A DNA stretch of 32,336 nt from the NCBI GenBank assembly GCA_027013735.1, contig JALWGH010000198.1, positions 1-32,336 on the forward strand. Direction: 5' to 3'. Shown here in pieces: positions 22,286-30,381 of the stretch (its first letter is position 1; the number at the start of each line of letters is the position of its first letter). A program made the position numbers and the translations under genes. Under the pieces are notes generated by a model. That model was not told the origin of the DNA, searched no databases, and saw nothing but the letters and a program-made list of their open reading frames with translations. The DNA comes from Melioribacteraceae bacterium. GTDB lineage: Bacteria; Bacteroidota; Ignavibacteria; Ignavibacteriales; Melioribacteraceae.

Positions 22286-23158
22286 ATGATTATTTCAGCA
22301 AGCAGGCGGACAGATATTCCGGCATATTATTCGAAGTGGTTCTTTAACAGAATTAAAGCCGGTTACTGCGAGGTGCGAAATCCGTTTAATCCTAAGCAAA
22401 TCTCTCGTGTTGACCTGCGCCCGGAAAGTGTTGATGCTATTGTCTTTTGGACGCGCAACCCCCGCCCGATGCTGAAATACTTGGACGAGCTCGACGAGCG
22501 TGGCTACAAATATTATTTTCAATACACGCTTAACAACTACCCAAGGATTTACGAACCAAACTGCCCGTCGTTGGATTCCGCAATTCAAACTTTCCGCGCG
22601 CTTTCAGAACGGATTGGAAATAGAAAAGTAATTTGGCGTTACGACCCTATTTTGTTTACGGACGATCTTACTTTGGATTTCCACATCGCAAATTTTAGCG
22701 AAATAGCTAAAAGCCTCGCGGGCTTTACGCAAAGGGTTGTAGTTAGCGTTATTGACGATTACAAAAAAACTTTGCGGAGATTGAACAAATTAAATGTCGG
22801 TTATTTTCCCAATCAAGAAAATAGTTCAAAAATTGAATTGTTACTGAAACAGATAGTTCAAATAGCGAACAAATACAGAATGGAAGTGAGAAGTTGTGCG
22901 GAACCGAAAGATTACAGTTATCTCGGCGTATTGCCGGGCAGGTGCATTGACGACGAATTGATTAGAAACGAACTTGGCGTGAACATTGAGTACAAAAAGG
23001 ACAAAGGACAAAGAGCCGCATGCCGTTGTACCGTAAGCAAGGACATCGGCGCGGTAAATACTTGTCTGATGGGCTGTGTCTATTGCTATGCCACACAAAG
23101 CCAACAAACAGCGATGAAAAACTGGAAGAAAAACAAAAGTTTACATATCTTGACGTGA
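22286..23158 (+). CDS. DUF1848 family protein with C-terminal Cys cluster
   Basis: MIISASRRTDIPAYYSKWFFNRIKAGYCEVRNPFNPKQ and CLMGCVYCYAT signature. Confidence 0.9.
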   Translation: MIISASRRTDIPAYYSKWFFNRIKAGYCEVRNPFNPKQISRVDLRPESVDAIVFWTRNPRPMLKYLDELDERGYKYYFQYTLNNYPRIYEPNCPSLDSAIQTFRALSERIGNRKVIWRYDPILFTDDLTLDFHIANFSEIAKSLAGFTQRVVVSVIDDYKKTLRRLNKLNVGYFPNQENSSKIELLLKQIVQIANKYRMEVRSCAEPKDYSYLGVLPGRCIDDELIRNELGVNIEYKKDKGQRAACRCTVSKDIGAVNTCLMGCVYCYATQSQQTAMKNWKKNKSLHILT

Positions 23159-24413: not shown

Positions 24414-24671
24414 ATGCGGATAGTAAGAATGAATCCCTACAACGGGGAATCCAAAACCAGAGCTTTCTTCGACGTTGAGACTACCGAAGGTATTATTATT
24501 AAAGGGCTCACGCTGGTTGAAGGCAACAACGGCTTGTTTGTCGGCGTGCCGAGCGAGAAAGGTAAAGACGGCAAATACTACGACAAAGTAATTTTTCCGA
24601 AAGAATTGAAAGACGAGCTTAGCGAGCTTGCGCTTAAAAAATACGAAGAAGTAAAAGCCGGTGTACAATAA
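24414..24671 (+). CDS. spoVG: SpoVG-family RNA/DNA-binding regulator
   Basis: MRIVRMNPYNGESKTRAFFDVETTEGIIIKGLTLVEGNNGLFVGVPSEKGKDGKYYDKVIFP matches SpoVG. Confidence 0.87.
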   Translation: MRIVRMNPYNGESKTRAFFDVETTEGIIIKGLTLVEGNNGLFVGVPSEKGKDGKYYDKVIFPKELKDELSELALKKYEEVKAGVQ

Positions 24672-24837: not shown

Positions 24838-25077
24838 ATGAGGTATAACATGATATCTTCAGTAACTACTAAAGGACAAGTAGTAATTCCTTCCAGACTA
24901 AGAAGAAAGTACGGAATAAAAATAGGAACTAAAATTTATTTTGAAGAAGATAAAGACGGAATTAAGTTGTATCCTGTTACTGAAAACATAATAGAAAAGA
25001 ATATGGGTATGCTGGGTACACAAGGGAAACTTCTTAAAAAACTGTTAGAGGAAAAGAAAACAGAGAAAGAATTATGA
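24838..25077 (+). CDS. AbrB/SpoVT-type (VapB-like) antitoxin; start may be ATG 24850
   Basis: MISSVTTKGQVVIPSRLRRKYGIKIGTKIYFEEDKDGIKLYP swapped-hairpin AbrB signature; GAGG 6 bp before ATG 24850. Confidence 0.9.
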   Translation: MRYNMISSVTTKGQVVIPSRLRRKYGIKIGTKIYFEEDKDGIKLYPVTENIIEKNMGMLGTQGKLLKKLLEEKKTEKEL

Positions 25078-25481
25078 AAAGAATTAAGCGATATGTCTTG
25101 GATTCGTACGCCGTATTAGCTTATTTGGAGGGAGAACGGGGGGGCGAAAAAGTTTCCTCTATTTTGAAGGAGGCGCTAAGTGGAAAGGTTGAAATTTATA
25201 TGAGCGTCATTAACTGGGGGGAGGTTTATTATATTGTCTTGAGGGAACAAGGATCTGCTATCGCTAATTTGTATTTACAAACAATGGAAAAATATCCAAT
25301 TGAAATTGTTGGAGTTGAAAGAGAATTAACTTTGGGAGCAGCCCAGATTAAAGCTTTTAATAGGTTGTCTTATGCCGATGCTTTTGCAGCAGCGCTTGCG
25401 CAAATGAAAAAAGCTTATCTTGTAACGGGCGACAAAGAATTTGACGTATTAAAGCGTACAGTAAATATTTTTTGGCTATAA
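25074..25481 (+). CDS. PIN-domain (VapC-like) toxin
   Basis: YVLDSYAVLAYLEGERGG; acidic residues at NWGEVYYI, LSYADAFAAALA and VTGDKEF; 4-nt overlap with antitoxin. Confidence 0.9.
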   Translation: MKRIKRYVLDSYAVLAYLEGERGGEKVSSILKEALSGKVEIYMSVINWGEVYYIVLREQGSAIANLYLQTMEKYPIEIVGVERELTLGAAQIKAFNRLSYADAFAAALAQMKKAYLVTGDKEFDVLKRTVNIFWL

Positions 25482-25509: not shown

Positions 25510-28020
25510 ATGGATACTAAAGTTAAAAATGAGATTTTAAATTCTCCTTTTTTTGCAGGGAAATTTCATAGACAAGAAATTAATTTACCACCCCCTTTAA
25601 AAAAAATAGCATTGACACAACTGAATTTTAGTGTCCGTTTTATGAATGTTTTGATGAAAACTTCTATCTCTGATTTGGAAGAACTTATTAATACAAATTA
25701 TGAACAAATAAAAAGTTTGCGGAATTGTGGAATAAAAAGCATTCAAGACGCCCAGAAAAAAGTTTTAGATTTTCTTCAAGAGTATTTTCCCGAGAATGAA
25801 GTTCAACAGAAAAAGAGCCAACTAAGAGTTAGTAAACCTATAGAAATTAGAAAAAAAGTTTTGAGGTCTCCTTTTTTTGCTGGGGAATTTTATGGATATA
25901 AAATTAATTTGCCAGCTTCTTTGAAAGGGATATTATTAGAACAATTGAACTTTAGTGTTCGTTTTATGAATATTTTAAGAATAGCCAGTATTTGTGATTT
26001 AGAAGAATTGCTTAATACAAGTTATGAACAAATAAGAAAACTACGAAATTGTGGGGCAAAAAGCATTGAAGATGCTCGAATAAAAATTTTGGATTTTATA
26101 CAAGAATATTCTTCCAAGAACAGAAATGCTCTATATAAAGATTTTCAAAGAGAAAAAGATTATGGCAAGAAGAGGATTGTTACAAAATCTTCTCATCTTA
26201 ATAATCCAAAATATATAATAGAAAATATTGAAAAACAGCTAAATACAATTAACCAAAGAAATCAGCGTATATTTGAGTTAAGGTTCGGGAAAAGCAAATC
26301 TTTAGAAGAAATTGGTGCCGAATTTGGAATTACTCGTGAAAGAGTAAGGCAGATTATTGAAAAAGAGATCAGTAGAATAAGTAATTTTATAGCTCCTAAT
26401 AGGAGAGCACATCAAGAATATTTCTTAAAGGAGATACTTAATACGGGCAAACCAATAAGCTGTGAGCAATTAGAAGTTTCTCCTTTAATAAAAATAACAT
26501 ATTCGCAAAAGATGTTATATCTGGGGCTTTTAGCCACTTTATTTCCTAATGTCCCTTTTGAAGGTTATTTATCTTTGAATATAAATAAGGTTGTTAAAAA
26601 GAATAAACAACAAAAAGAGACGGATTTTTATAAAATATATGCTACATTACTTAAAATGAATGTTCCATTTAATACTATTAGCTGGAATGTATTGTTTAGA
26701 TTATTGAAAACATCAAAAATTGAGGAGAAACTGTTTGTCCTAAAAATGATTTTTAATATGGAACAATTTGATGTAGTTTCCATAAATGGAAATTTTACTC
26801 TTATAAAAAAGGGTCCACTTCAAGAAATAGCTTTATCGATATTGGAGTCTAGTAGAATTCCTTTGCATGTAAAAGAAATTCTCAGAATTGGCAAAAAATA
26901 TTATGGAGTCGTGGGGAAATACAATTCTATTAGCTCTGTAATAGGAAACTTAAAAAATAATCAGAACCTATATGAGGTTGACAAGTATGTTTTTGGACTA
27001 AAGAAACATTTTAGTTATTCTTCTCAAGCATGGGGAGAAATAAATAAGAAAGCTAAACAAATAATCAAAAGTATTGGGCGTCAAGCATATGTTGCAGAAA
27101 TTTATGAACCATTAAAAAAATATTTTCCTAAACTTCGTTCTAAATATGAATTAGTTCATATTCTTAGGAGAGATGAGGAAATAGAGGATCTGGGTTTCTT
27201 TTATTTTTCTTTAAAAACTATGGGATTAACTAAAAGGATAAAAGTAAAAGATGCAATATTGAAATTATTTTTAGAGAGAGGACACCCATTACACTTTAGT
27301 GAAGTTTATAAAGAAATATATCAAAAAAGATATATAAGAATTGAGGGACTAAACCTTATATTAAAAAAACTTCGGTTCTTGAAATATTATGGAGGGGGTT
27401 TTTATGGGCTAATAAAAGAAGAACAGGTAAATATAAATTACTTAGCAAACAATGAATTGTATTTATCCAAAATAATAAGTCTTGAATTTTATCCTAACAC
27501 ATCATTTATGAGGTTGCTAACAATATTTGGTAACGACGAAATAAGACCTTTTGTAATGAATACAATTACCAGTAGTGATAAATTATTCTTATATGAGTAT
27601 CCAGAGGTAGAGCCGTTTGTAGTGCTGAAGGATTGGGCAATTGTTAGAATCGTTAAGTGCATTTTATATAATGTAAAACGCCAAGTTTACCTTGAAGAAC
27701 TAAAATGGATGTTGAGTGATATTGGTATTTTGATTGATGAAAGTAGTTATTATAAAATTAAGAACGATAATCACATTAAGATAGATAATAATAAACTTTC
27801 CTATTTGAATATTAATGTGAAGGAAAAAGATATTGAAGAAATTCTTGATATCTGTTATGAATTGTTAAGAGAGTTAAAAACTCCAAAATTAATAGATGAA
27901 ATTTGTGAGTATATTAATAATGAATACATTGAAATATCTAAAGATGAATTACTTTATTTATTAAAATCCGATGATAGATTTGTAATAATAAATAAACAAA
28001 TGGTCATAGTAGTAAGATGA
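25510..28020 (+). CDS. Multidomain protein: two RpoA-alphaCTD-like HhH repeats, sigma70 region-4-like HTH, several HARE-like winged-helix segments
   Basis: LNFSVRFMN-(V/I)L...DLEEL(I/L)NT.YEQI..LRNCG.KSI.DA resembles alphaCTD '[40 protein letters not shown]'; IFELRFGKSKSLEEIGAEFGITRERVRQIIEKEISRI is sigma4-like; ALSILESSRIPLHVKEI...VDKYVFGL and AILKLFLERGHPLHFSEVYKEI...GGGFYGL are HARE-like. Confidence 0.85.
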   Translation: MDTKVKNEILNSPFFAGKFHRQEINLPPPLKKIALTQLNFSVRFMNVLMKTSISDLEELINTNYEQIKSLRNCGIKSIQDAQKKVLDFLQEYFPENEVQQKKSQLRVSKPIEIRKKVLRSPFFAGEFYGYKINLPASLKGILLEQLNFSVRFMNILRIASICDLEELLNTSYEQIRKLRNCGAKSIEDARIKILDFIQEYSSKNRNALYKDFQREKDYGKKRIVTKSSHLNNPKYIIENIEKQLNTINQRNQRIFELRFGKSKSLEEIGAEFGITRERVRQIIEKEISRISNFIAPNRRAHQEYFLKEILNTGKPISCEQLEVSPLIKITYSQKMLYLGLLATLFPNVPFEGYLSLNINKVVKKNKQQKETDFYKIYATLLKMNVPFNTISWNVLFRLLKTSKIEEKLFVLKMIFNMEQFDVVSINGNFTLIKKGPLQEIALSILESSRIPLHVKEILRIGKKYYGVVGKYNSISSVIGNLKNNQNLYEVDKYVFGLKKHFSYSSQAWGEINKKAKQIIKSIGRQAYVAEIYEPLKKYFPKLRSKYELVHILRRDEEIEDLGFFYFSLKTMGLTKRIKVKDAILKLFLERGHPLHFSEVYKEIYQKRYIRIEGLNLILKKLRFLKYYGGGFYGLIKEEQVNINYLANNELYLSKIISLEFYPNTSFMRLLTIFGNDEIRPFVMNTITSSDKLFLYEYPEVEPFVVLKDWAIVRIVKCILYNVKRQVYLEELKWMLSDIGILIDESSYYKIKNDNHIKIDNNKLSYLNINVKEKDIEEILDICYELLRELKTPKLIDEICEYINNEYIEISKDELLYLLKSDDRFVIINKQMVIVVR
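25534..26121 (+). repeat. Internal duplication of an ~88-aa alphaCTD-like unit within the 836-aa CDS
   Basis: ILNSPFFAGKF...FLQEYFPEN versus VLRSPFFAGEF...FIQEYSSKN, conserved along the full unit. Confidence 0.88.
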
Positions 28021-28619
28021 AAAAGATTTCGAAAAAAGATAAGATTTTATATTCTATTTTTATTAAAGGAATGGGAAAGAAGAAAGTATTTTTATTCGAA
28101 GATATAGTTGTTTTTGTTCATAAATTCTTTCCAGGTGATTTCTCATTAAGCGGATATCCCGAATATCCAGATTCTGATATTTTTCGAAGGGCAATTTATT
28201 TTGAACTAAAACCGCAAGGCTTATTAAGAATTAAAAATAAACAGTGTGTACTAACGGACTTGGGAATAGAACGAGCGACAGAAATTGGAAAATATTTAGC
28301 TATTTCAGATAGTTCGCTTGTCAATCCTCAAAGGATTAATATTAATTACGAAATACAAAGGATGACAAGTTTAAAAGGGTTTGAGCTGTTTATTAACGGG
28401 AGAAAAAAAGAATTAATTGATCAGGACTTTTATGATTTTTTTAAGGTTTCCGTAAGAACGAAGCCTCTAGAACTAAGTGGTAATATTACCCAGATAAATT
28501 CGATTATAAAAAAAATAGAAAATGTTAATAAAAAAATTTCATTGGAATTAGCAAAATACTCGAAGTATTTAGAAGAAAATTACTTGGAATTGTTAGGGGG
28601 AGGTAATAATGAAAATTAA
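28017..28619 (+). CDS. Hypothetical protein with winged-helix-like N-terminal region
   Basis: ATGA overlap with the upstream gene; 'DIFRRAIYFELKPQGLLRIKNKQCVLTDLGIERATEIGK' looks like a wHTH wing and terminal helix. Confidence 0.7.
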   Translation: MKKISKKDKILYSIFIKGMGKKKVFLFEDIVVFVHKFFPGDFSLSGYPEYPDSDIFRRAIYFELKPQGLLRIKNKQCVLTDLGIERATEIGKYLAISDSSLVNPQRININYEIQRMTSLKGFELFINGRKKELIDQDFYDFFKVSVRTKPLELSGNITQINSIIKKIENVNKKISLELAKYSKYLEENYLELLGGGNNEN

Positions 28620-30381
28620 AGCCGAGAAACCAATTATTGATGAAGCTGTGTTAGATTTAATGGGCAAAGAATTTAAATTTGATCATGCTAAAGGTATTGC
28701 TGAGTGGTTTAAAAATTCTGTGGATGCCTATAATCTTGAAGAAACACCTGATGATGAACAAATAATTTATTTGTTTTTATCTGTTTCTAAAAATACTCAT
28801 ATCAAAGCTATTAGTGTTATAGATTTTGTCGGGATGTCTAAAGAAAAAATAGATGTAGCTTTTAAAAGATGGTTTGATCCACAAGCAGCCCGTAAAATGG
28901 ATAAGTCTCAAAAAAAGAACATTAAAACTCTGGGAGGACATGGTAACGGGGGTAAGTTTTATATGCGTGAAATGTTTAAAACTTCTAGTCTTATTACTTA
29001 CAGGGATAATAGATTAAACGGTTTTGGTTTTGACGAACATAAGCAGTATGGCTTTTATTCGGAACTGGACAATATAATGATAGATATTAATAATGCTATT
29101 GAGCGAGTAGGCTTTTATATTTACCATCCTCTACCTGATGAAGTTAGAAAACAAATTCTAAGGAGACAAAGGTTTACTATTGTAACTGGTTTTATTCCAA
29201 AGTCAGCTCATAAAACTAATTATGTGGGAGAATTGCTCAATAAACTTATTATACATCCACAAGCCAGAAGAATAATACAACATAAAAAAGTTTACCTTAT
29301 ATCGGGGAATAATATGCCTTCCAAAAAATTAATAATTCCACAACTGGTTCCTAAAAAAGGATTTAACGTGCCTTATGAATTTATATGCCCACAGTTTTTG
29401 CATTTTGAAAATAGGAAGATAAAGATGTATGACAGTTCTCCAATTAGATTAGTTCTATTTACCTCGGAAGAACCTCTTAAGGGAAGCAAATATAAAGGAA
29501 TGAATAGTATTGATTTTTTAGGAGATGTTGGGGTTATTGCTAATTATGAAATGAATGAAATTGGGCATTTTAGAAGTTATGTCTATAGTGAATTTATTTA
29601 TGGTGAATGCTATGCCCAAGTTATGGAAGATGAAGGGTATGTTACAAATGACAGGGAAAAATTCATTAAGAGCGATAAATCACAAGCATTGTTAAATTGG
29701 GTCAAAGAAAGTGTTGAATCTTTATGTGAAAACATGGAGCGAATCGCCAAAAAGGAAGCGAAAAAACAAAATTTACAAAAGACTTCAGAACTAAATGAAT
29801 TATTAAATATATGGAAAAATAGATTCTTACAGAAGGTTGTTCGTGAGAGATTAGCTGGAATTGGTGAGAAGTTTGGGATGGAAGGTGATAAAGAAGAAAA
29901 ATGGAGTGTTACTCCTGAAACTACACGTAAGAAAAAAAGTAATTCGCCTAAAAAATCAGGAAATTATGGAGGCGATAAAAAGAAACGAGGTGCTTTTTTC
30001 CCTGAAGTAAGAATTTCCGGTATGGATCCCGATCCCTTTTCAAACTCAAATGAGCCTTTTTATTGCGACCCACGGCAGCCTGCAGTATATCAAAGACCAA
30101 TTGATTTTCAATATGGCATATATTGGATTAATACTTCTAAAAAATTTGCTGAGTTAATTCTTGAAAAGTATGGGCCTGATTCAATAAGATGGAGGGAATA
30201 CCTTTTTCAAAGATATGTAGACATAATTGTAAGAGAAGCATTATATGCTTTGAGTAAAACTAATGTTGATTTAACAAGTGATTCTGTCTTAAATGAGATT
30301 GACAGAATAACTTCGGAAGTGCTTGATTTAGCAGCTGAGGATTTAGAATCATTTCTATTTGATAGGAATTTTAAATCTTAG
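28609..30381 (+). CDS. GHKL (Bergerat-fold) ATPase, MORC/MutL/Hsp90-like, with novel C-terminal region
   Basis: Motif I EWFKNSVDAY, motif II VIDFVGMS, motif III GGHGNGGKFYMREM; 11-nt overlap with upstream gene. Confidence 0.83.
   Translation: MKIKAEKPIIDEAVLDLMGKEFKFDHAKGIAEWFKNSVDAYNLEETPDDEQIIYLFLSVSKNTHIKAISVIDFVGMSKEKIDVAFKRWFDPQAARKMDKSQKKNIKTLGGHGNGGKFYMREMFKTSSLITYRDNRLNGFGFDEHKQYGFYSELDNIMIDINNAIERVGFYIYHPLPDEVRKQILRRQRFTIVTGFIPKSAHKTNYVGELLNKLIIHPQARRIIQHKKVYLISGNNMPSKKLIIPQLVPKKGFNVPYEFICPQFLHFENRKIKMYDSSPIRLVLFTSEEPLKGSKYKGMNSIDFLGDVGVIANYEMNEIGHFRSYVYSEFIYGECYAQVMEDEGYVTNDREKFIKSDKSQALLNWVKESVESLCENMERIAKKEAKKQNLQKTSELNELLNIWKNRFLQKVVRERLAGIGEKFGMEGDKEEKWSVTPETTRKKKSNSPKKSGNYGGDKKKRGAFFPEVRISGMDPDPFSNSNEPFYCDPRQPAVYQRPIDFQYGIYWINTSKKFAELILEKYGPDSIRWREYLFQRYVDIIVREALYALSKTNVDLTSDSVLNEIDRITSEVLDLAAEDLESFLFDRNFKS

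What the first reader, a model, noticed from the sequence alone, without database searches (positions are those of the whole stretch)
25510..30381. Candidate undescribed system: alphaCTD/sigma4/HARE protein + winged-helix-like partner + GHKL ATPase in an overlapping operon
Seen: three ORFs overlap by 4 nt (28017-28020) and 11 nt (28609-28619), so they are probably co-translated. The first combines RNA-polymerase-like DNA-binding modules, the second looks winged-helix-like, and the third has GHKL motifs (EWFKNSVDAY, DFVGMS, GGHGNGGKF). Established: HARE-HTH domains and prokaryotic MORC/MutL-like GHKL ATPases are described in restriction-modification and DNA-modification contexts. Inference: this is a defence or DNA-surveillance operon in which the first protein recognises promoter-like or modified DNA and the GHKL protein acts as an ATP-driven clamp. 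No nuclease or methylase is evident in the operon, which is unusual for such systems.
Basis: partly seen in the sequence, partly recalled or inferred. Interest (0 to 1): 0.88.

Follow-up and report, generated by a model that had tools for sequence, protein, structure and literature searches.

The report
Promoter-reading MORC-like DNA surveillance operon
Three adjoining genes, found together in bacteria of many phyla, encode a MORC-like ATP-driven DNA clamp, a small partner, and a DNA reader assembled from pieces of the cell's own promoter- and origin-recognising proteins, probably an unnamed restriction-type defence system; here it is preceded by an RNase toxin gene pair instead of the DNA methylase seen in many relatives.

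Summary
The three ORFs are real, overlap as described, and are conserved. Of 67 loci (about 25 NCBI phylum-rank groups), B lies near C in 58 and A in 36; core gaps are mostly ≤20 nt. C is a GHKL ATPase with all motifs; its model is closest to MORC2/MORC3. B is a winged helix plus helices. A is a mosaic: σ70 region 4 (34/35), RNAP αCTD (20/35, two copies here), HARE/winged helices (four here), and DnaA domain IV in ten members. DNA-contact residues of σ4, αCTD and DnaA are largely kept; most RNAP/activator-contact residues examined are not. Many relatives carry a C5 or N4/N6 methylase (often also Vsr) nearby, so this is a restriction-type GHKL operon related to BbrUII/HgiDII and paraMORC systems but matching none of the named systems tested. 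Best explanation (inferred, 0.48): A reads promoter-like DNA, B/C clamp it, PIN is an RNase guard. No nuclease is identifiable within A, B or C. Defence is inferred from context; nothing was tested experimentally.

The parts
24838..25077 (+). AbrB/MazE-type antitoxin (79 aa), first gene of the probable operon
   Evidence: Pfam MazE_antitoxin 1.3e-11; overlaps PIN by 4 nt; related pair lies upstream of core genes in 11 loci
25074..25481 (+). PIN-domain (VapC-like) RNase; catalytic D10, E50, D102, D120 kept in all 11 aligned relatives
   Evidence: Pfam PIN 9e-16; alignment and 6-28 nt gap to the next core gene in 9 of 11 loci
25510..28020 (+). Gene A, DNA-reader protein, 836 aa
25597..25764 (+). 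A residues 30-85: alphaCTD copy 1 (VRFMN...NCGIKS)
   Evidence: Pfam PF03118 4e-16; local profile 1.3e-19
25927..26094 (+). A residues about 140-195: alphaCTD copy 2 (VRFMN...NCGAKS)
26221..26385 (+). A residues about 238-292: sigma70 region 4 with TRERVRQI recognition helix
   Evidence: Pfam PF04545 6.5e-12; family profile matches SigA/RpoD structures at E 3.5e-22
26818..27003 (+). A residues 437-498: HARE/winged-helix copy 1
   Evidence: Pfam HARE 3.5e-4, below cut-off; local profile 2e-11
27055..27213 (+). A residues 516-568: HARE/winged-helix copy 2 (weakest)
   Evidence: 1.1e-4
27247..27411 (+). A residues 580-634: HARE/winged-helix copy 3
   Evidence: 1.8e-10
27847..27993 (+). A residues 780-828: HARE/winged-helix copy 4
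   Evidence: 7e-8
28017..28619 (+). Gene B, winged helix (res 6-93) plus helical C-terminal half; no candidate catalytic residues
   Evidence: AlphaFold pLDDT 91, weak winged-helix structure matches; homologue near C in 58 of 67 loci
28609..30381 (+). Gene C, GHKL ATPase (paraMORC/MORC-like), 590 aa
28702..28716 (+). GHKL motif I, E32-W-F-K-N36
   Evidence: E32 98%, N36 100% of 54
28822..28833 (+). GHKL motif II, D72-F-V-G75
   Evidence: D72 and G75 invariant
28933..28956 (+). GHKL motif III, GGHGNGGK (109-116)
   Evidence: 110-116 invariant
29992..30360 (+). C-terminal domain of C (res 462-584, YQRP.D...GIYWINT), no known fold assigned
   Evidence: confident model, N508 invariant; BbrUII alignment stops before it

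Best explanation
A restriction-type DNA-surveillance operon built on a MORC-like (paraMORC) GHKL clamp. A binds DNA carrying promoter-like sites (sigma region 4 for -35, alphaCTDs for UP-like DNA, HARE/winged helices for grip). B, a winged-helix adaptor, links A or DNA to C. C dimerises on ATP and clamps DNA. In many relatives a C5 or N4/N6 methylase would mark self DNA and Vsr would repair deaminated 5mC or nick. In this lineage there is no linked methylase and the genome has no C5 methylase match; an AbrB-PIN (VapBC-like) RNase pair heads the operon and probably acts as a guard that halts the cell if the system is lost or overwhelmed. Shown: gene content, conservation, domain identities, intact motifs and DNA-contact residues, predicted folds. 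Inferred: defence role, DNA targets, clamp action, guard role of PIN. Unknown: what, if anything, cuts DNA, and how self is recognised without a linked methylase.
For: B lies near C in 58 and A in 36 of 67 loci, with tight gaps: B-C <=20 nt in 39/40, C-B 16/17, C-A 22/25, A-B 8/9. C5 methylase in 22, N4/N6 in 19, Vsr in 17 loci (families); a viral contig carries a fused C5 methylase-Vsr gene next to B-C. C aligns with BbrUII-type GHKL proteins over 360 columns (probability 96%, E 2.4e-9), whose operons often have a C5 methylase and Vsr. Model of C closest to MORC2/MORC3. Sigma4 R584 33/34, E585 31/34, R588 31/34, Q589 34/34; alphaCTD R265 28/34, G296 31/31; DnaA R399 10/10, H434 10/10; contact residues sigma R596 and alphaCTD 261/273/287 mostly not kept. 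PIN vs methylase Fisher p=6e-4 and at least 4 state changes on the tree. Published proposals place paraMORCs in R-M operons (PMC2292703) and link a paraMORC-fused RNase to R-M backup (PMC3710099).
Against: No experimental evidence of defence. No nuclease fold is identifiable in A, B or C, and Vsr is present in only 17/67 loci. A is missing near C in 31 loci (some are contig ends), so it is not essential to the core. AbrB-PIN is a common cassette (51/294 genomes of the class, mostly without this system), so it may be a bystander addiction module. The Fisher test is not corrected for relatedness. MutL and HtpG comparisons used only 2 and 4 sequences.
Confidence: 0.48

Rival explanations
1. Initiation-site silencer: A directs the MORC-like clamp to promoters (and, in DnaA-domain-bearing members, DnaA-box sites) of incoming DNA, and the clamp blocks transcription or replication start without cutting.
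For: No nuclease recognisable in A-B-C; A's modules are readers of initiation sites with contact residues kept; winged helices of four A proteins match the Rok repressor domain; closest structures of C are MORC ATPases, known from the literature as silencing/compaction proteins.
Against: Methylase and Vsr partners point to restriction-modification; A is missing in many loci.
Confidence: 0.25
2. A is only a transcription regulator of the operon (like R-M controller proteins) and B-C alone, with the methylase, are the functional system.
For: A is optional (36/67) and its modules are transcription-type DNA binders.
Against: A is large, often the last gene (C-A junction in 25 loci), and strings together several DNA-reading modules including DnaA IV and once a GyrA propeller, more than a simple operon regulator needs.
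Confidence: 0.15
3. A host chromosome maintenance or repair module rather than defence.
For: Vsr partners; in this window DNA polymerase IV follows 65 nt after C.
Against: The pol IV neighbour is not conserved; distribution is sporadic (2/297 genomes of the phylum sample), A-B-C is more AT-rich than the rest of the window (28-32% vs 40% GC), and relatives occur on a conjugative plasmid and viral contigs.
Confidence: 0.08

Closest known systems
Prokaryotic MORC / paraMORC R-M operons (Iyer et al. 2008, PMC2292703)
   Same: GHKL ATPase with MORC-like model, linked in relatives to DNA methylases and Vsr; sporadic across phyla
   Different: Lacks the MORC-specific S5 motif; no TIR seen, no Pfam match to a nuclease domain, no conserved HxH; adds B and the mosaic A; this lineage has AbrB-PIN and no linked methylase
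BbrUII/HgiDII family GHKL restriction enzymes (NCBIfam NF050001)
   Same: Related over GHKL and the following region (96%, E 2.4e-9); often have C5 methylase and Vsr neighbours, one with an upstream PIN gene
   Different: Window protein gives no NF050001 hit at E 0.01; different C-terminal domain; no A or B detected in the BbrUII-type loci (1.5-kb flanks)
MZA anti-phage system (mzaABCDE) and the related predicted system of PMC9523054
   Same: A residues 161-309 resemble the end of MzaA (4e-13); both join a sigma-like protein to MORC/GHKL (MzaB as MutL-like is from memory)
   Different: No Z1 gene in 16 genomes tested; no PADLOC MzaB match for C
HEF_HK + Response_reg_2 R-M operons (PMC8011034)
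   Same: GHKL protein with C5 methylase and Vsr
   Different: No HEF_HK Pfam match in 57 C proteins at E 0.01
BREX type 2 PglW (PMC12839542)
   Same: Described as having an alphaCTD-like domain followed by winged helices
   Different: No kinase or ATPase domain matched in A; only a weak PglW hit (0.027)
VcSduA (paraMORC3/Shedu, PMC12137116)
   Same: GHKL clamp-type defence shown experimentally, with GHKL Glu and nuclease residues needed
   Different: Has a fused PD-(D/E)XK nuclease; none matched in C

Membership tests
GHKL ATPase superfamily | Motifs I-III with catalytic Glu and Asn | tested here: met
   E32 98%, N36, D72, G75 and G110-K116 100% of 54; PDB MORC/Hsp90 matches
MORC family (Iyer et al.) | GhXhhpXXRhl motif in S5 domain | tested here: not met
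   0 of 54
paraMORC (general) | GHKL plus S5, without the MORC motif | tested here: met
   model matches MORC GHKL-S5 structures; motif absent; the S5 domain was read from these matches, not tested on its own
paraMORC (general) | Embedded in an R-M operon | tested here: inconclusive
   true of many relatives, not of the window, which has no linked methylase and no C5 methylase match
paraMORC2 / 3 / 4 / 5 | ExxxH / RE-fold domain / TIR / HxH | tested here: inconclusive
BbrUII/HgiDII (NF050001) | Score above curated cut-off (550 bits) | tested here: not met
   window: no hit; 5/54 relatives hit with best E 1.3e-5; the model also rings in most genomes, probably on HtpG/MutL
MZA | Z1 gene | tested here: not met
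   0/16 genomes
MZA | MzaA-like protein | tested here: inconclusive
   49 bits over 161-309, cut-off 800
MZA | AIPR gene | not tested
   -
PADLOC-DB defence systems | Model match for core genes | tested here: not met
   only isolated weak hits among homologues
Type II VapBC toxin-antitoxin (24838-25481) | AbrB antitoxin overlapping PIN toxin with D-E-D-D | tested here: met
Anti-phage defence system | Protection of host | not testable with these tools
   needs phage or plasmid challenge

The most novel reading that the evidence does not exclude
A bacterial MORC-type silencing immunity: a mosaic reader protein recognises what an invader must carry to be used by the host (-35/UP promoter DNA, and DnaA-box-like sites in members with a DnaA domain) and loads a GHKL clamp there, blocking initiation without cleavage, with an RNase guard as backup.
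Probability: 0.2. Interest if true: 0.92.

Novelty: new variant of a known kind. Interest (0 to 1): 0.72.

Why it matters
GHKL/MORC proteins of R-M operons were predicted in 2008 but little tested. This adds an unnamed, widely scattered subfamily with a fixed winged-helix partner and a modular DNA reader that keeps the contact residues of sigma70, alpha and DnaA domains, giving concrete targets (-35/UP, DnaA-box-like DNA) for testing what such a clamp recognises. The recurrent AbrB-PIN placement where a linked methylase is absent suggests an RNase guard can accompany, or stand in for, modification.

Tried and rejected
Named system: rejected by PADLOC, NCBIfam and Z1 tests. DNA polymerase IV as a partner: not conserved. 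PIN exclusive to this system: rejected, a common cassette. DnaA modules taken from each present host: not supported, most group with one another and not with the host's DnaA; one (L027) is nearest its own host's DnaA at 54% identity. C as a strict MORC: motif absent. C as an obvious fused nuclease: none matched. NF050001 as proof of restriction function: the model rings in most genomes, so it carries little weight. HARE paper PMC3272235 not held.
Full report
Observation. The three ORFs and overlaps are as stated. A contains two alphaCTDs, a sigma70 region 4 and HARE-like winged helices. B folds as a winged helix with a helical second half. C has full GHKL motifs although no Pfam model rings for it alone; its model is closest to MORC2/MORC3 and Hsp90 structures.

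Setting. The window lies in a 3.1 Mb, 97.7% complete genome; the nearest relatives of the operon are in Ignavibacteriota and one Bacteroidota MAG. Upstream of A, 28 nt away, is an AbrB-PIN pair with a four-nt overlap and intact catalytic residues, so the probable operon is AbrB-PIN-A-B-C. A, B and C have 28-32% GC against 40% in the first 22 kb of the window, fitting, but not proving, recent acquisition. No clear terminator or promoter was placed; the scans gave about chance-level numbers.

Conservation. A GHKL alignment found 66 loci in genome contigs; with the window and a plasmid locus, and without a duplicate, 67 were analysed, in about 25 NCBI phylum-rank groups with 13 unassigned. B lies within 6 kb of C in 58 and A in 36; adjacent core genes are mostly within 20 nt. 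Some loci lack genes because contigs end. Two gene orders occur in the A-bearing clade (A-B-C; B-C-A), and a second clade is C-B without A. The system is sporadic: 2 of 297 genomes in a phylum sample. It occurs on a conjugative plasmid and six viral contigs carry relatives.

Partners. C5 methylase in 22 loci, N4/N6 in 19, Vsr in 17, a 75-80 aa protein (S) in 30, AbrB-PIN in 11. C5 methylase goes mostly with the A-bearing clade and N4/N6 with the C-B clade. PIN and methylase tend to exclude each other (1 locus with both; Fisher p 6e-4, uncorrected for relatedness) and so do PIN and S (0; p 7e-4). PIN needs at least four changes on the tree and lies in three separate clades. This genome has no C5 methylase match, nor do 8 of 10 other PIN-bearing genomes, whose completeness is not stated. 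This genome does have N4/N6 methylases elsewhere. The AbrB-PIN pair is otherwise common: 51 of 294 class genomes; of 30 loci inspected, 5 precede A, 3 precede B, 3 precede a methylase.

The reader protein. Sigma4 is in 34 of 35 A proteins, alphaCTD in 20, HARE in 13, DnaA domain IV in 10, GyrA propeller in one. DNA-contact positions, numbered by E. coli (contact assignments from general knowledge), are kept: sigma4 R584 33/34, E585 31/34, R588 31/34, Q589 34/34; alphaCTD R265 28/34, N268 20/34, G296 31/31, K298 21/30; DnaA R399 10/10, D433 9/10, H434 10/10. Positions that contact RNAP or activators (sigma R596; alphaCTD 261, 273, 287) mostly are not. This points to DNA reading without docking on polymerase; it is an inference from residues. 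DnaA modules mostly group with each other rather than with the host's own DnaA.

Relatives of C. Profile comparison gives 96% probability and E 2.4e-9 to BbrUII-type GHKL proteins, against 18% to HtpG and 0.7% to MutL, with few sequences in the last two. BbrUII-type operons often have C5 methylase and Vsr, one with PIN upstream. The MORC S5 motif is absent in all 54.

Mechanism and status. The best explanation is a restriction-type GHKL clamp directed by a promoter-reading protein, with an RNase guard in this lineage. No cutter is identified within A, B or C. Rivals are initiation-site silencing, a mere regulator role for A, and a repair role. Known: paraMORC-type operons and MORC-like clamps. 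New here, as far as the tools reach: the A mosaic, the fixed B partner, the taxonomic breadth, and PIN in place of a linked methylase. Function remains untested.

Noticed in passing
L070:9890-11689: On a viral contig a single 599-aa ORF matches both C5 methylase and Vsr profiles directly downstream of B-C.
   Followed up: partly
L017:1906-2133 and 29 other loci: Small S protein (about 75 aa, GNLSNK.NY.Y motif) directly before B or C in 30 loci; three examples gave no Pfam family or only weak hits.
   Followed up: partly
L018:2970-5435: An A protein carrying a GyrA C-terminal propeller match (2.4e-21) besides alphaCTD and sigma4.
   Followed up: no
L138 (genome G295) and L105: AbrB-PIN upstream of a C5 methylase and a BbrUII-type GHKL gene.
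   Followed up: partly
9 of 57 C proteins: Nine C proteins match the bacterial Ig-like domain Big_2, best E 3.4e-9.
   Followed up: no
model of C against viral structures: Overall fold match to an uncharacterised Hokovirus protein (E 4e-16, TM 0.47) and to phage RIIA proteins.
   Followed up: no
L011:3211-5004: C gene appears broken into three ORFs (98, 290, 189 aa), by mutation or assembly error.
   Followed up: no
window 22286-23155: DUF1848 protein with a strong match to PADLOC's RTasDUF1848 (1.8e-48), a reverse-transcriptase-associated family.
   Followed up: no
window 24414-24671: SpoVG-like protein 166 nt upstream of the AbrB-PIN pair.
   Followed up: no
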